This document shows positions 116 to 12,836 of a stretch of DNA of 64,000 nt, in pieces. The first letter of the stretch is position 1, and each line of letters opens with the position of its first letter. The notes under the pieces were generated by a model that was given only the letters and a program-made list of their open reading frames with translations, had not been told where the DNA came from and searched no databases. Made by a program: the position numbers and the translations under genes. Source of the DNA: Clostridia bacterium (GTDB taxonomy: Bacteria > Bacillota > Clostridia > Peptostreptococcales > Acidaminobacteraceae); NCBI GenBank assembly GCA_018399635.1, contig JAGYOH010000006.1, positions 1 to 64,000 of the forward strand, in the 5' to 3' direction.

Positions 116-820
116 GTGATTCTTTTGAAAAAACATATCCTTGTTGTTGATGATGATTCGGCCATCGGCAAGCTCATCAAGCCCGCCCTGGACAAAAACG
201 GCTATCTGACCACGATACTCACCTCGGGGGAAGAGGCTCTCTTGTTGATGGACCGGACCCCTATCGACGCCGCCATCCTTGACATTGTCCTGCCCGGCAT
301 CGACGGTCTCGAGGTCCTCAAGAGGATTCGCGAGCATCCACGCTACAAGGCCCTGCCTGTCATCATCCTTTCCTCTAAAGACAGTGAAATCGAAACAGTC
401 CTCGGCCTTGAAATGGGAGCGGACGACTATCTTTTCAAGCCCCTTCGCTACCATGAACTCCTGGCCAGGTTGAAAAAGTTGATTTCACGCAGTGCCTTCG
501 TCCCCCCTGACAGGGCCGGTCACCTGGCCCGTTTCGGAATGGCAATCGACCTGGAATCAAGGATTGTCACGGGAAAGAAGGGTGAAATCGCCTTGACCTA
601 TCTGGAATTCGAACTCCTCAGCCTGCTGGCAAATCACCCTGGCAGGGTTTTCACCCGGGACAACCTTCTCGACGCCATCTGGCATGAAGACCAGTTCAAT
701 GAAACCCGCACGGTGGATGTCCACATTCGTCGCCTGCGCAAAAAACTAGAGGAAAACGATATCCACCCCGGTATCATTCAAACTGTCCGGGGTGTCGGAT
801 ACCGCATGGCCTCTGTGTGA
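116..820 (+). CDS. OmpR/PhoB-family DNA-binding response regulator
   Basis: The protein has 234 residues, the usual length for an OmpR-family two-component regulator. A receiver domain (about residues 6-120) has the acidic pocket DDD at 12-14, the likely phosphoacceptor Asp56 in the string AAILDIVLPGIDG, and the conserved Lys108 in DYLFKPL. A C-terminal winged helix (about 135-232) contains the typical TYLEFELLSLLANHPGRVFTR and VDVHIRRLRKKLE segments. The GTG at 116 or the TTG at 125 could be the start; both have only a weak ribosome site. No histidine kinase gene lies next to it and a terminator follows, so it appears orphan within the window. Its target is unknown. Confidence 0.92.
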   Translation: MILLKKHILVVDDDSAIGKLIKPALDKNGYLTTILTSGEEALLLMDRTPIDAAILDIVLPGIDGLEVLKRIREHPRYKALPVIILSSKDSEIETVLGLEMGADDYLFKPLRYHELLARLKKLISRSAFVPPDRAGHLARFGMAIDLESRIVTGKKGEIALTYLEFELLSLLANHPGRVFTRDNLLDAIWHEDQFNETRTVDVHIRRLRKKLEENDIHPGIIQTVRGVGYRMASV

Positions 821-943: not shown

Positions 944-1357
944 TTAGAACTTTCTGTCCAGAAACTTCTTGATGGTGAGTCTGTTCTGCTTTTCCTTGTA
1001 CTCGTAATGCATGTCATCCATCAGGCTTTTCACCATCAGGATGCCCAGGCCTCCGACCTCCCGCTCTTCCAGATCGAGATTCACATCGATGGCAGGCTGT
1101 TCGAAGGGATTGAAGGGTGCCCCTTCATCGATGAAGGTGATCGAAACATAGTCCACCCCGTCCTCAAAGGCGATTTCCAGTTCCCCTTCTCCGTCGTCAT
1201 AAGCGTAATTCATGACATTGACAATGATTTCCTCACAGGCGGTAACCACCTTGATGATCGATTTCCGCTCGAATTCTTTTTCTTCCAGTTGTTCTTCAAT
1301 AAAGGCGGCGCACATTTCATAGTTCTCGATTTTGGCCTTGACTCTTAATTTTTTCAA
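944..1357 (-). CDS. RsbW/SpoIIAB-like serine kinase (HATPase) anti-sigma-type regulator
   Basis: This 137-residue protein is a GHKL-fold ATPase of the anti-sigma serine kinase type. The N box is visible in EEIIVNVMNYAY, the G1 box in FIDEGAPFNP and the G2 box in GGLGILMVKSLMDD. Such proteins bind a sigma factor or other target and phosphorylate a STAS antagonist. The gene is last in the minus-strand block, directly downstream of a STAS gene and beyond the peptide exporter. No sigma factor gene is adjacent, so its target is not known. The sigma factor at 37.7 kb has its own RsbW, which makes a separate target possible. Confidence 0.88.
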   Translation of the reverse strand: MKKLRVKAKIENYEMCAAFIEEQLEEKEFERKSIIKVVTACEEIIVNVMNYAYDDGEGELEIAFEDGVDYVSITFIDEGAPFNPFEQPAIDVNLDLEEREVGGLGILMVKSLMDDMHYEYKEKQNRLTIKKFLDRKF

Positions 1358-1393: not shown

Positions 1394-1696
1394 TTACGAA
1401 ATAGTTAGAATCCCGGAAAAACCTGTAATGTCGAAAACCTCCTTGACGGATTCGTTGGCATTGACGATTTCGAGTGCCGTCCCGAGGGATTTGACTTTTT
1501 TCTGTGCGGTCAACAGCACCCTGAGTCCCGCACTGCTGATGTACTCCAACTCTCGAAAATCAAAAATCAGACTGAGGGCCTCGCCTTCGAACAGATGACC
1601 CAGCTCGGTGGCCAGCTGGCTGCTGGTCACCGTATCCAGTCTTCCTTCAAGCTCTAAACGAGCCAGATTCCCTTCCATGGTAGTGGTGATTTTCAT
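1394..1696 (-). CDS. STAS-domain anti-anti-sigma factor
   Basis: The protein is about 100 residues, a single STAS domain like SpoIIAA/RsbV. The segment YISSAGLRVLL carries the expected phosphorylatable serine (Ser54 or Ser55 from the chosen start). The start at 1696 was chosen because AAGGAGG lies 9 bases upstream; another ATG two codons earlier sits too close to that site. The gene lies between a double-glycine peptide gene and the RsbW-like ATPase. Together with the SpoIIE-type phosphatase at 9.0-10.9 kb it completes a partner-switching trio wrapped around the exporter genes. Confidence 0.9.
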   Translation of the reverse strand: MKITTTMEGNLARLELEGRLDTVTSSQLATELGHLFEGEALSLIFDFRELEYISSAGLRVLLTAQKKVKSLGTALEIVNANESVKEVFDITGFSGILTIS

Positions 1697-1716
1697 GGGC
1701 ATATTCCTCCTTGAAT

Positions 1717-1998
1717 TTACTTTCTTTCGTTCACGGACAGGTTGCAGACCATGTAGGTGCCTTCCCAGCTCTTGTACCGGCAGTAGCTGCAGCATTTCGT
1801 CCCCCTCATGCCGGGATCGACACCCTCCCTGATTTCAAACCCTTCGCAACTGTAAGACCCGGTCACGATGCGTTTTCCGCTGACAGGAGACTGAGTGCCT
1901 CCGGTCACGGTATCGAGATCGTGTTCCGAGAGGGTTGCCGAAGGCTCAGGCTGGTTGTTTTTTTGACTGTCCCCTTTGAACTTCTTTTGCTGGTCCAT
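1717..1998 (-). CDS. Double-glycine leader peptide, cysteine-rich (exporter substrate candidate)
   Basis: The 93-residue product has a short hydrophilic leader ending in LSEHDLDTVTGG (residues 23-34), the double-glycine motif cut by C39-type exporters. The 59-residue remainder holds five cysteines (51, 69, 70, 73, 85). The part C70-x2-C73-x-Y75 followed by Y82-x-V-C85 resembles the end of the product at 8337-8732. AAAGGAGG lies 11 bases before the ATG. The gene follows the second ABC transporter and precedes the STAS gene. The leader is much shorter than the Nif11-like leaders of the other candidates. The mature activity is unknown. Confidence 0.75.
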   Translation of the reverse strand: MDQQKKFKGDSQKNNQPEPSATLSEHDLDTVTGGTQSPVSGKRIVTGSYSCEGFEIREGVDPGMRGTKCCSYCRYKSWEGTYMVCNLSVNERK

Positions 1999-4241: not shown

Positions 4242-6380
4242 TTATTCACTCGTGACAAGTTCGGTGTATTTCCCGCCCAGGGCGTACAACTGATCATGGG
4301 TCCCCCGCTCCACCACGACCCCCCGGTCCAGGACCAGGATTTCATCACAATCTCTGATCGTCGACAAGCGGTGGGCGATGACGATGCAGGTCGCACCGAT
4401 GTTTCGAATATTGTTCATGACCTCTTCCTCCGTCTTGGCGTCCAGAGCGCTGGTCGCCTCGTCAAGAATGATGATGGTGGGCTCCTGGGCCAGTACCCGG
4501 GCAATCTCGATCCGCTGCTGCTGACCTCCGGAAAAGTTCTTGCCCCCCTCTTGAAGAAGACTGTCATACCCTTGATTCCGGGTGATGATGGCTTCGTGGA
4601 TATCCGCATCCCGGGCGGCCATGATCACGGCGAAGTCCTCGATGGAGGCGTCCCACAGACGGATGTTGTTGGCCACGGTATCCTCGAAAAGGGTGATGTC
4701 CTGATCGACCATGGCCAGGGAATTCTTGAAGATGTAGTCGGAGTGTTCCTGTCGTTTTTTCCCGTCGAAACGCAATTCACCGCTCCAGGGGTCGTAGAGG
4801 CCGGCGATCAGTTTTGCCAGTGTTGATTTGCCGCTGCCGCTGCCGCCGACAAAGGCGACGGTCGAACCGGGCTTCAAGGAAACGGAGAAATCCCTGATCA
4901 GGGGTTCCGACAGGCGGTTGTAGCCGAAGGTCAGGTTCTTGATTTCAATTTCACCTGCCAGTTTTCCTGCGGAAAGATCCTCCACCTGTCCCTCAAGGGT
5001 ATCCGTCTGGTAATCCATGACGTCCTGAACCCGTTCCATGGAGGACCGCATGGTAATGAAACCCTGGCCGACGCCGATCAGTTGATTCACCGGTGACATG
5101 AAGGATCCCAGAAATCCCTGGAAGGCCAGAAGCATACCGATGGTGAAATCTCCCTCCATGATGAAATAGACACCGATCATGAGGATGGCGATGCTGGTCA
5201 CTTGTTGCAGAAATTGGGGAATCGTATTGTAGTAAAGGTCGAAAACGGTGTTTTTCACCCGGGCGTTGTGGTCCTTGACGAAGTAACCCGCCCAGCGCTC
5301 GAAGAATCCACGCTCCGCCCCCGCCGCCTTGATGGTTTCAATCATCATGATGCCGGACATGGTCACCCCGGCCAGTTTGCCGCCACTGGCCTGGAGGGAC
5401 CGGCTCAGATCCACCTGTTTTCTGGCTGAATAACGCATCACCGCCATGTTGAGAAGGGCCGCCCCCAGGCCGATCAGGGTCAGTATGACGCTGTACTGGA
5501 GCATGATGGTCAGATAGATAACCAGCAGCACCACGTTCATGAAGACCGGGGCCAGTTGGCGGATCAAGGTGCTGGCGATCTGTTCATTGGAGGAGAGACG
5601 GGACACGATATCCCCGGCATATCGCTGGGAGAAGAACTCCACGGGCAGCCTCAGAACGTGCCACATGAACTGGGAATTGGCCGTAATGGCGAATCTTCCT
5701 TCAATCCGAAGCCAATAGTGGGCCTCGATGACTCCCACCACGAACTGGAAAAGGATCAAGAGGAAAAAGGCCAGGACAAAGGGAAGGAGCCATTCCGGGT
5801 TCTTTCCCGACAGGATGTAATCCATGAACACCTTTGAAAACAGCGGACTCACCACGCCGATGAAGGCCACCAGAATCCCCGTGAACACCACGAAGGCGAA
5901 GGCCGACAGGGTCCCCTCCAGCCGTTTTCTGGCAAATTCCAGAACACTCGGCGGCTTTCCCTGGGGAACAAAATCCTTTCCCTTCTCGAACTGCAGGACG
6001 ATTCCCGTGAAGGAGCGGTCGAATTCCTCCATGGGCACCTCCACGGTGCCTCTGGCGGGATCATTGATCACCGCCTTGTCTTTCTTGTAGCCGTTGAAGA
6101 CGACAAAATGATTGAAGTTCCAGTGAATGATGGCAGGGAGTGGCATCTGGGAAAGCATCCGGGGCTCCATGCGGAATCCCATGGCCTTGAGTCCGTAGAC
6201 CCGGGCGGCCCGGACAATGCTCTTGGCACTCGAACCGTCCCGGGACACCCCCAGATCGGCACGGACCTTCTCCAGGGGAAGCCATTTCCCGTGATAGGCC
6301 AGGACCATGCACAGGGCAGCCGCCCCGCATTCCAGCGCTTCCATTTGAAGAACCACCGGCACCTTGGCGATTTTAGCCAT
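4242..6380 (-). CDS. NHLM-type peptide exporter with C39 leader peptidase
   Basis: This 712-residue protein joins three parts. An N-terminal C39 peptidase (about 1-135) shows catalytic Cys18 in ALECGAAAL, His91 in WNFNHFVVF and Asp107 in INDPARG. A six-helix permease region covers about 160-430. A C-terminal ATPase has Walker A GGSGSGKSTLAKL, signature FSGGQQQRIEIARVL and Walker B TIIILDEATSALD. The family cuts leaders after Gly-Gly and exports the rest. It lies between the short HlyD-like adaptor and the second ABC gene and should process the double-glycine peptides encoded on both sides of it. Confidence 0.93.
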   Translation of the reverse strand: MAKIAKVPVVLQMEALECGAAALCMVLAYHGKWLPLEKVRADLGVSRDGSSAKSIVRAARVYGLKAMGFRMEPRMLSQMPLPAIIHWNFNHFVVFNGYKKDKAVINDPARGTVEVPMEEFDRSFTGIVLQFEKGKDFVPQGKPPSVLEFARKRLEGTLSAFAFVVFTGILVAFIGVVSPLFSKVFMDYILSGKNPEWLLPFVLAFFLLILFQFVVGVIEAHYWLRIEGRFAITANSQFMWHVLRLPVEFFSQRYAGDIVSRLSSNEQIASTLIRQLAPVFMNVVLLVIYLTIMLQYSVILTLIGLGAALLNMAVMRYSARKQVDLSRSLQASGGKLAGVTMSGIMMIETIKAAGAERGFFERWAGYFVKDHNARVKNTVFDLYYNTIPQFLQQVTSIAILMIGVYFIMEGDFTIGMLLAFQGFLGSFMSPVNQLIGVGQGFITMRSSMERVQDVMDYQTDTLEGQVEDLSAGKLAGEIEIKNLTFGYNRLSEPLIRDFSVSLKPGSTVAFVGGSGSGKSTLAKLIAGLYDPWSGELRFDGKKRQEHSDYIFKNSLAMVDQDITLFEDTVANNIRLWDASIEDFAVIMAARDADIHEAIITRNQGYDSLLQEGGKNFSGGQQQRIEIARVLAQEPTIIILDEATSALDAKTEEEVMNNIRNIGATCIVIAHRLSTIRDCDEILVLDRGVVVERGTHDQLYALGGKYTELVTSE

Positions 6381-6397: not shown

Positions 6398-6976
6398 CTA
6401 TCGCAACAGCAATTCATAAGGCTTTCTCTCCTTCGTGATGACGGCAATATTGACATAAGCACCCTTGCTGATTTCAATTTCGCGGCCCAGAGGACTCGAC
6501 CACTTGAGTTCACCCTGGTCCATCTGGTAGCTGATCGTGATGGCTACGGGGTTGCCCTCGGGGATGAGGCTTTCCACCCACTGCAGGCTGCCGAAGGTGC
6601 CTAGAATCTCCTCCTCCATCACCGGGGTCTGGCCGATGGACCGGATGACCCCCAGGGCATAGCCGTATTCCTCCCGCGGGGCGTATTCCGGTGAAAGCTG
6701 GGCCGTCATGCCCTCCCGCATTCGCTTGGCGACCTCCATGGGGACATAGGCATAGATCATCTGCTCCGCCGTTGCCCCCTCATAGGCGATTCCCTTGATC
6801 TTGACGGTTTCAGGAATCGTACCGATGACGGCCCAGATTCCCACTGAAATGATCAGGGCGAAGAGGGCGATCAAGAGCAGCCAGATGCCGCCATTTGTCA
6901 CCTTGACATATTCATTCAACTGCTCCGGGGAAGAAATCTTCTCCAGGGAACTCTTTCTAAAGATGCTGTTTTCCAT
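6398..6976 (-). CDS. Short HlyD-like secretion adaptor of NHLM exporter
   Basis: The start at 6976 gives a 192-residue protein. It has GGAAGGTGGGG just upstream and a family-like N-terminus (SLEKISSPEQLNEYVKV) before one membrane helix at about 31-52. The rest is a small extracytoplasmic beta domain. Canonical HlyD adaptors are roughly twice as long because of a coiled-coil hairpin, and no such hairpin is visible. The short form fits a single-membrane cell where no outer channel must be reached. The start overlaps the end of the candidate gene at 6957-7259 by 20 bp. Confidence 0.8.
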   Translation of the reverse strand: MENSIFRKSSLEKISSPEQLNEYVKVTNGGIWLLLIALFALIISVGIWAVIGTIPETVKIKGIAYEGATAEQMIYAYVPMEVAKRMREGMTAQLSPEYAPREEYGYALGVIRSIGQTPVMEEEILGTFGSLQWVESLIPEGNPVAITISYQMDQGELKWSSPLGREIEISKGAYVNIAVITKERKPYELLLR

Positions 6977-7280: not shown

Positions 7281-7637
7281 CTAGACCGGAAGGTTGGTGA
7301 AATAACCCGCTTTACAGTAGACGATGGGTCTTCGGTTGATCTTGTCATATCCTGTGCGCAATTCCGGGCACATGTTGATGCCGCAGTGCAGGATGCTGAA
7401 GGATTGCAGGCAGTCCGTCGGCGCGGCCCCCCCGGTCACTTGAACCAGCTCCTCCTCCGACAAAATTCCCGGAGGCTTTTCATCCACCTCTGATTTCCAC
7501 TCGGCTTCGGTAAATTCAAACCCCTCTTCCCTGGCCAGGGCCACAATGGCCGTGACGGTTTCAGCCTGAAGAAATTTCTCCCTCAAGGCTTCGTCGGCCT
7601 TCATTCCCATGACAAAGGTCACGATGTTTTCTGTCAT
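7281..7637 (-). CDS. Nif11-type leader peptide, cysteine-rich exporter substrate candidate
   Basis: From the ATG at 7637 (AAAGGAGTGAAGAAG upstream) the product has 118 residues. The first 70 form a Nif11-like leader (MTENIVTFVMGM, then AREEGFEFTEAEW) that ends in LSEEELVQVTGG. The 48-residue tail has four cysteines at 76, 85, 90 and 108. Nif11-type leaders are known from families of ribosomally made peptides exported by NHLM-type transporters. No modification enzyme is encoded nearby, so whether the tail is modified, disulfide-bonded or metal-binding cannot be told. Confidence 0.85.
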   Translation of the reverse strand: MTENIVTFVMGMKADEALREKFLQAETVTAIVALAREEGFEFTEAEWKSEVDEKPPGILSEEELVQVTGGAAPTDCLQSFSILHCGINMCPELRTGYDKINRRPIVYCKAGYFTNLPV

Positions 7638-7708
7638 CTTCTTCACTCCTTTAATCATTTCCAGCCGGACCCGACACTTGTCGAGCCGCTGCACACACCG
7701 GTCTCGTC

Positions 7709-7742
7709 GCTCCCCGGGTCCCTCAGGTCGTCACCGGGGAGC
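7709..7742 (-). promoter_or_regulatory. GC-rich hairpin between peptide genes
   Basis: GCTCCCCG (7709-7716) pairs with CGGGGAGC (7735-7742) in the roughly 195-bp gap before the Nif11-type gene. There is no T-run, so it is not a typical terminator. It could be an mRNA processing or stability element that sets unequal expression of the peptide genes. Confidence 0.35.
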
Positions 7743-7832
7743 CGGTGGTTTCACAAGACATGCCTTCGACCTATTTTGAAACCTCAATCTTCACCAGGCG
7801 GTCCTCCGCCAGCCACTCTTGACGACCCTCTC

Positions 7833-8219
7833 CTAAGGGAAGAAATGCTCGATTTCTCGTCGAATGCCGACGTTGCTGTGGCCCGTCGCGTTTCTGTGGG
7901 CCATGAGCAGCTCTCCGGCCTTCAACAAGCCTCCATCCGACTGCGTGAGCCTGACCGTTCTGCTCCACCCGCAATCCGTGCATTCACAAATATAACGCTC
8001 CTCGAAATTGTAACTCCCCTGGCCCCCCGCTATCTCCTCGAGGTCCTCCTCGGACAAGACTTCGGCTGATTCCTGAAGATCCTCCGGCTGCAGAACAAGC
8101 CCCGCCGCCTTGGCAACAGCGGATTTTTCATCGAGGCTCCCGGCCTGATTGAACTGCCTTAAAAAATCCTCATCCTCATTCATTTTCTTGATCAAGGCTT
8201 TCATTCTTTCCTTTGACAT
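7833..8219 (-). CDS. Nif11-type leader peptide with C2H2-like core
   Basis: The 128-residue product has a Nif11-like leader (1-66) ending LSEEDLEEIAGG. Its 62-residue core contains C78, C80-x2-C83, then H108-x5-H114, the spacing of a classic C2H2 zinc finger, followed by a basic, aromatic tail. GGAGGAATAATCA precedes the ATG. The gene is the second small gene after the phosphatase in the minus-strand block. A zinc-binding exported peptide is an inference from the spacing alone; disulfides among the cysteines are an alternative. Confidence 0.83.
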   Translation of the reverse strand: MSKERMKALIKKMNEDEDFLRQFNQAGSLDEKSAVAKAAGLVLQPEDLQESAEVLSEEDLEEIAGGQGSYNFEERYICECTDCGWSRTVRLTQSDGGLLKAGELLMAHRNATGHSNVGIRREIEHFFP

Positions 8220-8336
8220 TGATTATTCCTCCAGACAAGTCGGTCTATTGTTGGTGATTGCCTTCATTTTCCTGCTCCTGATTTACAGACTTCCCGCCGG
8301 CAGGATTCCCTTTCAACCCTCTTCTCCCATTCAGGC

Positions 8337-8732
8337 CTACTCCCAGATCATTTCACTGCCGATGTTCTGGCAGACCAGATCATAACCGTTGGGTCCCATG
8401 CTCTTCTTCACATAGGGACAATTCTTGCAATTGTCATCGACAACCCCGACCTGCCCCATGCCGAACCAAAGCACGAATTTCGTATGCCCGTTGGGACAAT
8501 TGCTGATGGGACTGTAGAATCCTCCTCCGGCGACCTGGTCCAGTTCATCATCCGACAAGGCCTCCCCCCCGGTGTTTTTGACCATGAGTCCCTTCACCCG
8601 GTCCTCCTCTTCAGCCGTCATGACGACACCCCTCACGGCCAGGTAGACCATGAAGGCTTCCATGGACCCCACTTCTCTGATCTTGGATTTGAACGCTTCT
8701 CCTTCTATTGCCATCAATTCTTCCAGTTTCAT
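8337..8732 (-). CDS. Double-glycine leader peptide with four-cysteine core
   Basis: The product has 131 residues. The leader (1-70) ends LSDDELDQVAGG and is helical and acidic as in Nif11/NHLP leaders, though less typical than its neighbours. The 61-residue core has Cys79 in a CPNGH motif, C102-x2-C105 and Cys121, a layout reminiscent of a small zinc ribbon. C102-x2-C105-x-Y107 and Y117-x2-V-C121 recur in the product at 1717-1998. AAGGGGGAATTGCG precedes the ATG. It is the first peptide gene after the phosphatase gene, separated by about 275 bp in which I see no further gene. Confidence 0.8.
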   Translation of the reverse strand: MKLEELMAIEGEAFKSKIREVGSMEAFMVYLAVRGVVMTAEEEDRVKGLMVKNTGGEALSDDELDQVAGGGFYSPISNCPNGHTKFVLWFGMGQVGVVDDNCKNCPYVKKSMGPNGYDLVCQNIGSEMIWE

Positions 8733-9007: not shown

Positions 9008-10861
9008 CTAGGCCTTGTTCTCGCGGAGCATCAAGGCCAGCATGGTGACATCGTCAGAAGCCGGCGTATCCAGGACAAAGCGGTCAATCTCTTGTCTCAT
9101 GCCCCCGATGATTCCCCGGACGTCGCTGTGTTTCAGGCGGTTGGCCGCCGCCACCATGCGGCTGTCTCCAAGAAGATCATTCTGAGCGTTGGTCGCCTCG
9201 GAAACACCGTCGGTATAGACGAACAACCGGTCATGGGGCTTCAAGACGGTTGTGAGAGAATCATACCGGTAGTCCTCCATGCCTCCCAGCACCAGATAGT
9301 GGTTCACTTTGAGGAAGTCGAAGTCACCGCCCTCCCTTGAGACAAGAGGAGGATTGTGACCCGCACTGATGTATTCCAGTTCACCGGTCCTCGTATCGAG
9401 AATGCCCATGAAAACCGTCACAAACATATTTTCTTCATTGTCGGAGCACAGCAGGTTGTTGGTCTGGTAAAAGATATCCGGCATTGAATTACCCTGAAGC
9501 ACCTGGTTTTTGAGAATGGTCCTGGTGATCACCATGAAGAGGGCGGCAGGGATTCCCTTTCCCGAAACATCGCCGATGCTGAAGCACAACCGATGATCGT
9601 CAATCAGAAAGAAATCATAGAAATCACCCCCGACCTCCTTGGCCGGCTCCATGGTGGCGTATAAATCCAGATTCGCCATGTTGGGATAGGGGGGGAACAA
9701 GCGGGGCAGCATGCTGGTCTGGATTTTGTTCGCCACCTCGAGTTCACTCTGGATCCGTTCTTTTTCCGCCGTCGTTTTTTTCAGGTTTTCTATGTAATCG
9801 ATGAGGTTGGTCTTCATCTTGCTGAAGTCATCCGCCAGTTCCTCGATCTCATCCCCCGTCCTGATATCGAGAGCATGCTGGAGATTCCCGCCGCTGACGA
9901 TCCTGACCCCCTCCTTCAGGGCGAGGATCGGCGTCGTGATGCGCTTTGAGATGATGAAGACCACCAGGAGGACGATTCCCATGATCCCGCTCATCAGCAA
10001 GACCACCTGCCGCATGAGATTCATGGCCGGACCCATCAGTTCATCTTCGTAGAGAGAGATGCCCAGGGTCCAGGAAGGGGTGCCCGGGATCGGGTTGAAG
10101 ACGGTAACCAACTTTTCTCCATCGGGATTTTCATAGGCCATCAGTCCCGGCTCCCCTTCGAGCATGCGTTCTCCGATTGCCTCAAGGCCCCGGTACCCCC
10201 ATTCATCGGATTCAAGGTAATTCATGGTCATGACCAATTGGTCCTCGGGATAGGCAATCAGCAGTCCGGTCTGGTCCACGATATAGCCAAAACCCTGCTC
10301 ACCGATTTCAATGGCCCTGGCAATCTCCGAGAGGGTCTTCAAGAGGACCGTTGCCGCCATGAGTCCCGTTTTCTGGCCGCGGTCGTCATAAACCGCCCTG
10401 GCCACCACGAGCATTCTGGCGCCGGTTGAATAGGAAATCACCGGCTCGCTGATATAATAGCTGTGTTCCCCGAGAATAATGGCCTTGTAGTAATCACGGT
10501 CCCTGATATCTCCCCGTTTTCCCTGGGTGGTGACATAATTGCCCTCAAGATCGGCATAGAACAGAATTTCGTAGTCCCTGTTGATGCGGTCCGCCTGGGC
10601 CATCAGGTCTGCTTCAATCTCCTCAAGATCCCCTCGGCGGACCAGGTCCCGCCGGGACATGATGGTGACTTCGTTGACATACCCCTCCACCAGTCTCGCG
10701 ATTTCCGCCGACCTGGCAACCAGCACCTCCTGGCTGAGATGCCTGGTCAACGGAATCACCGTGTCACCCACCTCCCTGTAAACCACCACCCCTGAAACAG
10801 TCAGCAGAATGAGCAGCGACAGCCCGAACCAAAGCAGCATTTTCCCTCTAATCGATTTCAT
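9008..10861 (-). CDS. Membrane sensor SpoIIE/RsbU-type PP2C phosphatase
   Basis: The start at 10861 follows GGAGGGAAGG and gives 617 residues. One membrane helix (about 7-28) precedes a large extracytoplasmic sensor of the dCache type. A second helix lies at roughly 285-305, followed by a HAMP domain, a short coiled coil and a C-terminal PP2C domain with DFYDFFLIDDHRLCFSIGDV, SAGHNPPLVS, FVYTDGVSEATN and DDVTMLALM. These phosphatases dephosphorylate STAS proteins and so release a partner-switch target. It is the first gene of the block running to the STAS and RsbW-like genes, so it is the likely input that tells the export system about an outside signal. Confidence 0.92.
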   Translation of the reverse strand: MKSIRGKMLLWFGLSLLILLTVSGVVVYREVGDTVIPLTRHLSQEVLVARSAEIARLVEGYVNEVTIMSRRDLVRRGDLEEIEADLMAQADRINRDYEILFYADLEGNYVTTQGKRGDIRDRDYYKAIILGEHSYYISEPVISYSTGARMLVVARAVYDDRGQKTGLMAATVLLKTLSEIARAIEIGEQGFGYIVDQTGLLIAYPEDQLVMTMNYLESDEWGYRGLEAIGERMLEGEPGLMAYENPDGEKLVTVFNPIPGTPSWTLGISLYEDELMGPAMNLMRQVVLLMSGIMGIVLLVVFIISKRITTPILALKEGVRIVSGGNLQHALDIRTGDEIEELADDFSKMKTNLIDYIENLKKTTAEKERIQSELEVANKIQTSMLPRLFPPYPNMANLDLYATMEPAKEVGGDFYDFFLIDDHRLCFSIGDVSGKGIPAALFMVITRTILKNQVLQGNSMPDIFYQTNNLLCSDNEENMFVTVFMGILDTRTGELEYISAGHNPPLVSREGGDFDFLKVNHYLVLGGMEDYRYDSLTTVLKPHDRLFVYTDGVSEATNAQNDLLGDSRMVAAANRLKHSDVRGIIGGMRQEIDRFVLDTPASDDVTMLALMLRENKA

Positions 10862-11041: not shown

Positions 11042-11113
11042 GCCGGGTAACGGAGAAATCGTGACCACCGCAAACCGTCGGTGGGGCATCAAGCCACAGG
11101 GCCGTCATGGACG

Positions 11114-11145
11114 ACAAAAGTCCCCGCAAAGTATTGCGGGGACTT
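11114..11145 (-). terminator. Terminator of tRNA-Arg
   Basis: A 12-bp stem (11118-11129 with 11134-11145) around a 4-base loop, followed on the minus strand by four T residues, lies just downstream of the tRNA 3' end. Confidence 0.85.
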
Positions 11146-11150
11146 GATTT

Positions 11151-11227
11151 TGGCGCACCCGGCGGGAGTCGAACCCACGACCTACCGCTTAGGAGGCGGT
11201 TGCTCTATCCTTCTGAGCTACGGGTGC
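11151..11227 (-). tRNA. tRNA-Arg (anticodon CCT)
   Basis: The minus strand gives a complete cloverleaf of 74 nt plus an encoded CCA. The acceptor stem is GCACCCG/CGGGTGC. The anticodon stem ACCGC/GCGGT encloses the loop CTCCTAA, so the anticodon is CCT and reads AGG. The T arm is GTGGGTTCGACTCCCGC. It stands alone between the antiporter operon and its terminator. Confidence 0.95.
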
Positions 11228-11282
11228 AGAATTCATCGGTGGGGACCGATGGCGCCCCGCCTTCTGAAAAGGCGGGAGCGGT

Positions 11283-12836
11283 TCAAATGAAAACCACGAG
11301 ACTTAAAACGAAAAACACCAGCAGGACGATCCCGTTGTCAAAGGAAAGGGAGAAATGACGCATCTTCTTCATCAAGGCCTTCTCATGGATGCCGAAGGCA
11401 AAGAACCAGGTGATGCCGAGCAACACCTCGAAGGAGGTCTTTACCAGGTTCATGGGCTTGAAATAGTACCACAGATCCCTGGTCATGCTCTGATAATCGG
11501 GGAAGAGGGTCCCCAGGAAAAAGATGGCGAGGGACAGGAAGCCCATGGCCACGTACTTGCTGGTCTTGACATCGACCTTGACGGGCTGGTGGGAACCCAG
11601 AATCTGGAGAATCTTGAACATGGATCCCGCCGTCAGACTGTTGACCAGGACCAGGGGGAGCAACTGCCACAAGGGCAGATTCATTCCCATGGCGCTCTTG
11701 GCGATATAGCCGCTGGTGAAGGGAATTCCCGCCAGGGCAAAGGTGCCGATGATCAGAAAAACAGACAGCAACGAGTCATTTTCCCATAAGCCTCTGATTT
11801 TGTCAACCCGGCGTTCCTTGTATTGGTTGATGACAATGCCGGAGCCGAGAAAGAGCAGACTTTTGATCAGGGAATGGCTGACCAGATAAAGTAGCGCCAT
11901 ATCTATATTAATCGAAAACGCGATCATAATCAACCCAATCTGGCTGACCGTGTGAAAAGAAAGAATCTGCTTGATGTCCTTCTGGGAAAAGGCGAATACC
12001 ACTCCCATGAGGGCGGTGAAGATGCCCAGAAGGTAAAAGAGCCCGGAAAAGTCAAAAATCTTGAAGACCGAGGTGAGCTTCATCAGACCGATGATGCCGG
12101 TCTTGACCAGCAATCCCGACAAGAGGGCGGAGATTGACGTGATGGCGGCGCTGTGGGCCTTGGGCAGCCAGTCGTATACCGGAAAGACGGCTGACTTGAC
12201 CCCGAAGGCGCTCACCATGAGAATCACCCCGATTCTCACGGTATCGTCCATGCCGGTTGCCGTCACCAGCTCGGCCATCAGACTCAGATTCAAGGTCCCG
12301 AATCTGAGGTAGAGGATGATGACCCCGATCAGGTAGATCATCATGCCCACGGTATTGAAGAGCAGATAGTAGATTCCCGCCTTGAGGGAATGGGCGTCCT
12401 TCTTGTAGATGATCAGGATCGTGGAGATGATGGTGATCAGTTCCAGCATGACGAAAATATTGAAAATATCATCACTGAGGACAAAGCCGTTGAAGGTCCC
12501 CTGAAGCAGGAGCACAAAGAACAGGAACTTGAAATCGTGGTCCTTGCTTTGATAGATGAAGATCAGAATCACCGTGAAGAGGAAGGTCGCCAGGATGATG
12601 AAGGTCGCACTCAGTGCATCGAATTTCAGGCCGATGCCGATAAATGGCTCCCAGCCACCGATGACCTCGTAGAGCACGATCCCCTTCTTTACCGCTCCCA
12701 GGAGCTGCAGGGTGATGACCATGACCACGGCTTCGGCCAGGTAGATCCAGCGGTACAGTTTCACTGAATTCACCAGATAGATGAAGACCCCCAGGACAAT
12801 GGGAAGAAATATCAGGGTGTAGAGCAGCTTTTCCAT
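11283..12836 (-). CDS. mnhD: Cation/proton antiporter subunit D (MnhD/MrpD/MbhH-like)
   Basis: The 517-residue protein is a NuoN/MrpD-family proton-translocating subunit with about 14 membrane helices. The conserved region VYDWLPKAHSAAITSISALLSG and a Lys/Glu-rich membrane core are clear. It is the last gene of the eight-gene operon and abuts the preceding subunit C gene with no gap. It is the only large antiporter-type subunit here; a full-length MrpA is absent, as in Mbh-type modules. It would move ions across the cytoplasmic membrane for Na+/pH balance. Confidence 0.92.
   Translation of the reverse strand: MEKLLYTLIFLPIVLGVFIYLVNSVKLYRWIYLAEAVVMVITLQLLGAVKKGIVLYEVIGGWEPFIGIGLKFDALSATFIILATFLFTVILIFIYQSKDHDFKFLFFVLLLQGTFNGFVLSDDIFNIFVMLELITIISTILIIYKKDAHSLKAGIYYLLFNTVGMMIYLIGVIILYLRFGTLNLSLMAELVTATGMDDTVRIGVILMVSAFGVKSAVFPVYDWLPKAHSAAITSISALLSGLLVKTGIIGLMKLTSVFKIFDFSGLFYLLGIFTALMGVVFAFSQKDIKQILSFHTVSQIGLIMIAFSINIDMALLYLVSHSLIKSLLFLGSGIVINQYKERRVDKIRGLWENDSLLSVFLIIGTFALAGIPFTSGYIAKSAMGMNLPLWQLLPLVLVNSLTAGSMFKILQILGSHQPVKVDVKTSKYVAMGFLSLAIFFLGTLFPDYQSMTRDLWYYFKPMNLVKTSFEVLLGITWFFAFGIHEKALMKKMRHFSLSFDNGIVLLVFFVLSLVVFI

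What the first reader, a model, noticed from the sequence alone, without database searches (positions are those of the whole stretch)
7281..8732. Several different cysteine-rich peptides for one exporter, with no modification enzyme
Three adjacent genes and one distant one (1717-1998) share LSxxxLxxxxGG leaders but have different cores of 48-62 residues with four or five cysteines. I see no LanM, YcaO or radical SAM peptide-modifying gene in the block. The products may act unmodified, with disulfides, or be modified by an enzyme encoded elsewhere. Either way this would be an unusual peptide family.
Basis: partly seen in the sequence, partly recalled or inferred. Interest (0 to 1): 0.72.

Follow-up and report, generated by a model that had tools for sequence, protein, structure and literature searches.

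The report
Exported cysteine-rich peptides without modifying enzyme
A clostridial anaerobe makes four different small cysteine-rich peptides next to one bacteriocin-type exporter and has no recognisable enzyme to modify them; related bacteria repeat the arrangement, which suggests these are conserved, folded mini-proteins released unmodified rather than a typical modified peptide antibiotic.

Summary
Four double-glycine precursors flank one NHLM-type exporter on the minus strand. Two (pep2, pep3) pass the Nif11-leader cut-off, pep1 is a sub-threshold match, and pep4 (1717-1998) has a short leader without Nif11. Pep4 is not distant: it lies 16 bases after the second ABC gene. Cores are 48-62 residues with 4, 3, 4 and 5 cysteines. 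No LanC/LanM, YcaO or PqqD/RRE was found in the 95.6%-complete genome. The only recognised peptide-modifying radical SAM enzyme is the SCIFF maturase, beside its own SCIFF peptide. A same-genus genome keeps the whole block; the cores are under purifying selection (dN/dS 0.12-0.31) and keep every cysteine. Pep3- and pep4-type cores recur beside the same exporter in other Clostridia without a nearby maturase, whereas a glycine-rich core type has a radical SAM neighbour. C-x2-C enrichment, random cysteine parity and no detected DsbA make metal-site mini-domains somewhat likelier than disulfides (not shown). Partner-switching genes flank the exporter here and in 23 of 39 related loci, against 0 of 20 controls. 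Verdict: a new variant of N11P/NHLM export systems; absence of a maturase was already noted for some N11Ps in 2010.

The parts
9008..10861 (-). dCache-HAMP-SpoIIE (PP2C) phosphatase, 617 aa, first gene of the block; ends about 275 bp before pep1
   Evidence: PF07228 154 bits, PF02743, PF00672; best NCBIfam relative SiaA, far below cut-off; start by Shine-Dalgarno and sister conservation
8337..8732 (-). pep1: double-glycine precursor, 131 aa; core GFYSPISNCPNGHTK...CKNCPYV...VCQN, 61 aa, 4 Cys
   Evidence: TIGR03798 17.1 bits, sub-threshold; sister orthologue, core dN/dS 0.17
7833..8219 (-). pep2: Nif11-leader precursor, 128 aa; core with CxCxxC and HxxxxxH, 62 aa, 3 Cys
   Evidence: TIGR03798 46.6 bits, PF07862; core dN/dS 0.14
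7281..7637 (-). pep3: Nif11-leader precursor, 118 aa; core C-x8-C-x4-CP-x17-C, 48 aa, 4 Cys (core family A)
   Evidence: TIGR03798 48.9 bits, PF07862; homologues in sister and Petroclostridium; core dN/dS 0.31
6398..6976 (-). short HlyD-like NHLM membrane-fusion protein, 192 aa
   Evidence: TIGR03794 109.9 bits, below cut-off 156.2; start by sister conservation
4242..6380 (-). NHLM ABC1: C39 peptidase/permease/ATPase
   Evidence: TIGR03796 942 bits over cut-off; PF03412
2015..4192 (-). NHLM ABC2: permease/ATPase without peptidase
   Evidence: TIGR03797 726.6 bits over cut-off
1717..1998 (-). pep4: short-leader (34 aa) double-glycine precursor, 93 aa; core YSC...KCCSYCRY...MVCN, 59 aa, 5 Cys (core family B); no Nif11 domain
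   Evidence: no Nif11 match; homologues L063, L069, L070 and L128; core dN/dS 0.12
1394..1702 (-). STAS anti-sigma-factor antagonist (RsbV/SpoIIAA type), 102 aa
   Evidence: TIGR00377 71.7 bits, PF01740; SSAG motif visible
944..1357 (-). RsbW-like HATPase_c_2 kinase, 137 aa
   Evidence: PF13581 73 bits; 96% identical to sister, dN/dS 0.03
116..820 (+). OmpR/PhoB-type response regulator, convergent with the block; a similar one lies near the end of the sister and Petroclostridium clusters

Best explanation
A double-glycine peptide export system. The C39 domain of ABC1 cuts each precursor after Gly-Gly, and the NHLM exporter (ABC1, ABC2, short HlyD) releases four different conserved cysteine-rich mini-proteins. 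No dedicated RiPP maturase acts on them; the cores fold through their cysteines, more probably by binding a metal such as zinc than by obligatory disulfides. A partner-switching module (dCache-SpoIIE phosphatase, STAS protein, RsbW-like kinase) encoded in the same block probably controls production or export in response to an extracellular signal. Shown here: gene content, conservation, purifying selection on the cores, presence of the C39, ABC and phosphatase families, absence of the searched maturases. Inferred: cleavage, export, lack of modification, metal binding, regulation, and an extracellular (antagonistic or signalling) role.
For: ABC1 and ABC2 over family cut-offs. All four leaders carry L(-12), E/D(-8), L(-7), V/I(-4), G(-2), G(-1); a C39 domain of this kind needs only about the last 13 leader residues and tolerates many cores (PMC6363468), so pep4 fits although it lacks Nif11. 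No LANC_like, YcaO or PqqD in the genome; the radical SAM set is almost all named housekeeping enzymes plus the SCIFF maturase beside its own peptide. Cores conserved and under purifying selection, with lower dN than the leaders in three of four. Core families A and B recur next to the same exporter without a recognised maturase within the held flank; 10 carrier genomes lack LANC_like; the sister, L042 and L063 genomes show only one SCIFF-type maturase. C-x2-C 48 observed vs 20.2 (sd 4.2) shuffled, parity 23 even/25 odd; DSBA family not found. Partner-switching genes in 23 of 39 long exporter loci, 14 with two or more kinds, vs 0 of 20 control stretches at the same cut-offs.
Against: The genome is a 36-contig assembly and the window starts at a contig end, so a maturase could lie in a gap. 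Own cores match no zinc-ribbon family; relatives' cores match such families only below cut-off. Structure models have pLDDT about 71 and no significant fold match. Cysteine-spacing counts come from related sequences and are not independent. The control stretches come from one genome. No sigma factor or other output of the partner switch was found in the window.
Confidence: 0.55

Rival explanations
1. Disulfide-bonded class II-type bacteriocins: the cores are exported reduced and form intramolecular disulfides outside, acting as antimicrobials.
For: Double-glycine leaders of the bacteriocin type; pep1 and pep3 have four cysteines; no maturase found.
Against: No DSBA-family protein found in the genome; pep2 has 3 and pep4 has 5 cysteines; parity over 48 exporter-linked cores is 23 even/25 odd and C-x2-C is enriched. 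No immunity gene recognised.
Confidence: 0.22
2. RiPP precursors modified in trans by the SCIFF radical SAM maturase or an unrecognised enzyme encoded elsewhere or in an assembly gap.
For: The SCIFF maturase is in the genome (TIGR03974 over cut-off) and is distantly related to the nif11-peptide maturase family; one B12-type radical SAM (L027) and one other (L023) have no assigned role; Nif11 leaders are often read by modifying enzymes.
Against: The SCIFF maturase has its own peptide beside it and pep4 has no Nif11 leader; cores are conserved, not hypervariable as in prochlorosin-type systems; families A and B recur without neighbouring maturase, while the Gly-rich core type in L056, L088, L097, L106 does have a radical SAM neighbour.
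Confidence: 0.18
3. The peptides are intracellular regulators of the partner switch and are not exported.
For: pep4 lies between ABC2 and the STAS gene with 16- and 14-base gaps.
Against: C39 recognition motif in all four and direct linkage of such precursors to the exporter in many genomes.
Confidence: 0.05

Closest known systems
N11P (Nif11-derived peptide) precursors with the NHLM three-gene exporter (Haft et al. 2010, PMC2887384)
   Same: Nif11 leader ending in double glycine; TIGR03796/TIGR03797/TIGR03794-type exporter adjacent; several paralogous precursors. The paper notes that some N11Ps occur in species without TOMM or lanthionine enzymes.
   Different: Cores are 48-62 residues (23 is the average suffix for the family in that paper's table), conserved between species and shared with other genera; pep4 lacks the Nif11 part; a partner-switching module is built into the block.
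Lah cluster of Lachnospiraceae C6A11 (PMC6363468)
   Same: One C39/PCAT exporter with many Nif11-leader precursors of diverse core; same recognition residues.
   Different: That is a lanthipeptide operon; no LANC_like enzyme was found here.
Radical SAM Cys-rich peptide clusters of Clostridia (seen here as L056, L088, L097, L106)
   Same: Same exporter and similar leaders; cysteine-rich cores.
   Different: Gly-rich CxC cores with a radical SAM/SPASM neighbour.
SCIFF peptide and maturase
   Same: Cysteine-rich clostridial peptide; its maturase is in this genome.
   Different: Separate contig, own precursor; linkage to a double-glycine exporter not tested.
Partner-switching regulators (RsbU/RsbV/RsbW, SpoIIE/SpoIIAA/SpoIIAB, SiaABC)
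   Same: SpoIIE-type phosphatase with sensor, STAS protein and HATPase kinase.
   Different: Encoded around a peptide exporter; no sigma factor or output protein recognised in the window.

Membership tests
N11P precursor (TIGR03798) | Nif11-like leader over the curated cut-off of 32.3 bits (pep2, pep3) | tested here: met
   pep2 46.6, pep3 48.9 bits
N11P precursor (TIGR03798) | Nif11-like leader over the curated cut-off of 32.3 bits (pep1, pep4) | tested here: not met
   pep1 17.1 bits, pep4 no match
N11P precursor (TIGR03798) | double-glycine cleavage motif with L-12, E/D-8, L-7 | tested here: met
   all four sequences; motif from PMC6363468
NHLM exporter | ABC1 with C39 peptidase, TIGR03796 | tested here: met
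   942 bits, cut-off 853; PF03412
NHLM exporter | ABC2, TIGR03797 | tested here: met
   726.6 bits, cut-off 709.4
NHLM exporter | HlyD-like subunit, TIGR03794 | tested here: not met
   109.9 bits against cut-off 156.2; a short 192-aa version in the right place
Lanthipeptide | LanM/LanC-type cyclase | tested here: not met
   no LANC_like match in genome, control rings in one genome; LanB search had no working control and is inconclusive
TOMM / azole RiPP | YcaO cyclodehydratase | tested here: not met
   no YcaO match, controls ring in 5 genomes
Radical SAM RiPP (sactipeptide, ranthipeptide) | dedicated radical SAM/SPASM maturase in the cluster | tested here: not met
   none in block; genome holds the SCIFF maturase with its own peptide and a tungsten-cofactor maturase-like protein
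Class II unmodified bacteriocin | antimicrobial activity of the unmodified, leader-free peptide | not testable with these tools
   needs culture or expression work
Partner-switching module | SpoIIE phosphatase, STAS antagonist and HATPase kinase | tested here: met
   PF07228, PF01740, PF13581 over cut-off
Partner-switching module | sigma factor or other output partner | tested here: inconclusive
   none recognised in the block; window begins at a contig end
Zinc-ribbon / zinc-finger protein | match to a known zinc-binding family | tested here: inconclusive
   own cores: no match over cut-off; relatives' cores match zinc ribbons only below cut-off

The most novel reading that the evidence does not exclude
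A widespread clostridial export class in which bacteriocin-type transporters release unmodified zinc-finger-like mini-proteins, under control of a sensor-driven partner switch, as extracellular effectors or signals; no such class is described in the papers searched.
Probability: 0.27. Interest if true: 0.75.

Novelty: new variant of a known kind. Interest (0 to 1): 0.5.

Why it matters
If the cores are released unmodified, Nif11/NHLM systems are not only RiPP factories but also a general export route for small folded cysteine-rich proteins, and genome miners who require a modifying enzyme miss them. The recurrent partner-switching module suggests regulated, signal-driven release that can be tested directly.

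Tried and rejected
A tempting 100-aa ORF (7259-6957) between pep3 and HlyD was rejected: the sister has no matching open frame there and the conserved start of HlyD lies inside it. Homology of all four cores to each other: profile comparison of family A with B, and of pep1 with A or B, gave no support, so only cysteine spacing is shared. PDB sequence search and Foldseek with two AlphaFold models gave nothing significant; family A's many hits to the RPB9 zinc ribbon have E of about 3-6 and are not evidence. Core searches over 391 genomes of the class found family A only in the own genome and Petroclostridium at good scores, and family B in the own genome with weak hits elsewhere, one of which (L124/L128) is a true exporter-linked peptide. 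Promoter and terminator scans did not resolve operon boundaries. Rfam found only a tRNA. The LanB search is uninformative because no control rang. Paper searches for zinc ribbon, anti-sigma or Clostridia combined with these exporters returned nothing on point.

Full report
WHAT IS THERE. The block lies on the minus strand. Reading 5' to 3': a dCache-HAMP-SpoIIE phosphatase (10861-9008), pep1 (8732-8337), pep2 (8219-7833), pep3 (7637-7281), a short HlyD (6976-6398), ABC1 with a C39 peptidase (6380-4242), ABC2 (4192-2015), pep4 (1998-1717), a STAS protein (1702-1394) and an RsbW-like kinase (1357-944). A convergent OmpR-type response regulator sits at 116-820. The window is contig C33 from its first base, so anything further downstream is missing; in the sister genome a long sensor-kinase-like frame (protein-kinase-like N-terminus by eye, not tested) follows in the opposite direction.

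ARE THE PEPTIDES REAL. pep2 and pep3 pass the TIGR03798 cut-off, pep1 scores 17.1 bits and pep4 has no Nif11 match. Orthologues are 78-82% identical. Core dN/dS is 0.17, 0.14, 0.31 and 0.12 for pep1 to pep4, and every cysteine is kept. In pep1, pep2 and pep4 the core has a lower dN than the leader. That is the opposite of the hypervariable cores of prochlorosin-type systems (established knowledge) and suggests that the core sequence itself is the functional, probably folded, product.

CORRECTIONS TO THE FINDING. pep4 is part of the block, not distant. Cysteine counts are 4, 3, 4 and 5. The listed starts of pep3 and HlyD are too far upstream.

NO MODIFYING ENZYME. The genome (2.36 Mb, 95.6% complete) has no LANC_like, YcaO or PqqD/RRE match, each with working controls. 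Its 19 radical SAM proteins were all examined: MiaB, RimO, MtaB, RlmN, HemW, HemZ, MoaA, LipA, lysine aminomutase, YtqA, AmmeMemoRadiSam, YjjW-type, TIGR03279- and TIGR03960-type, an ELP3-like protein, a tungsten-cofactor maturase-like protein (slightly under cut-off), one B12-type and one other without assigned role, and the SCIFF maturase. The SCIFF maturase is on another contig with a SCIFF peptide next to it. The LanB search had no working control.

RELATIVES. A scan with ABC2 found 80 exporter loci, nearly all labelled Clostridia. Cores like pep3 (family A: C-x8-C-x4..8-C-P/D-H...C) occur four times in Petroclostridium sp. X23 (L038; phmmer E 6e-7 to 3e-10 with pep3) and, in a longer form grouped by eye and alignment, in L041, L042 and L056. 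Cores like pep4 (family B: GRxVT..YSC...CxxC-K/R-Y..YE.G..xCN) occur several times in a row in L063 and L069 and in L070 and L078. In L128 (genome G422) a short-leader family-B peptide lies shortly after ABC2, as here. No maturase was recognised beside the family A and B peptides in the held flanks of L038, L063 and L069 (by inspection of the frames, not by a full family scan), nor LANC_like in ten carrier genomes. By contrast a third, Gly-rich CxC core type (L056, L088, L097, L106) has a radical SAM/SPASM neighbour, and those genomes hold SCIFF-unlike peptide-type radical SAM proteins. Some A/B carriers (L038, L041, L069, L070) also hold one further SCIFF-related radical SAM elsewhere in the genome, so absence in trans is not proven for them; the own, sister, L042 and L063 genomes show only one.

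HOW IT PROBABLY WORKS. All leaders have L-12, E/D-8, L-7, V/I-4 and GG, the residues that a characterised C39 domain reads; about 13 leader residues suffice (PMC6363468). Export of all four by the one exporter is therefore the simplest reading, and pep4 needs no Nif11 part for it. What holds the cores together is open. C-x2-C spacing is enriched among 48 exporter-linked cores (48 vs 20.2, sd 4.2) while several other short spacings are depleted; odd and even cysteine numbers are equally common; some relatives' cores resemble zinc ribbons below cut-off; no DSBA was found. These favour metal sites over obligatory disulfides, but none is decisive and the models are weak.

REGULATION. Phosphatase, STAS and kinase genes occur within the held flanks in 23 of 39 long exporter loci (14 with two or more kinds) and in none of 20 stretches of 20 kb from Petroclostridium at the same cut-offs (one SpoIIE hit of 133 bits fell under the 150-bit cut-off). 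The control is from one genome and the exporter loci are not independent, so this shows an association, not its strength. ECF sigma factors occur near some of the relatives' clusters (L038, L041), not in this window's block.

NOVELTY. N11P precursors next to NHLM transporters, and N11Ps in species without known maturases, were reported in 2010. New here, as far as the papers searched show, are the conserved, cross-genus core families A and B, purifying selection on the cores, the short-leader pep4 type, and the partner-switching association. I rate it a new variant of a known kind.

Noticed in passing
L014 10506-15024 and L015 8764-10819 (same-family genomes G029, G021): Nif11-leader peptides with small hydrophobic, cysteine-poor cores lie next to NHLM exporters and large genes that look like radical SAM-type partners; a different, possibly modified, peptide type in the same bacterial family. 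Not family-tested.
   Followed up: no
L013/L034 (LQBE01000041.1): A record titled 'delta proteobacterium ML8_F1' is the same genus as this genome and groups with Clostridia by its exporter and gene content; the record name looks mislabelled.
   Followed up: partly
window 11107-11358 (+): Apparent ORF 'GGSRTHDLPLRRRLLYPSELRV...' is antisense to a tRNA-Arg gene (11151-11227, minus strand) and is a spurious frame.
   Followed up: yes
L063 12575-15226 and L069 12284-15622: Six to seven consecutive double-glycine precursors with cysteine-rich cores directly after ABC2; two in L063 look zinc-ribbon-like. A good place to study this peptide class.
   Followed up: partly
L038 14384-15757 (-): An IS4-family transposase sits inside the Petroclostridium array of family A peptides.
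   Followed up: no
L013 16619-20000 (+): Very long open frame divergent from the response regulator, starting with a protein-kinase-like segment; the corresponding region of this genome lies beyond the contig end.
   Followed up: no
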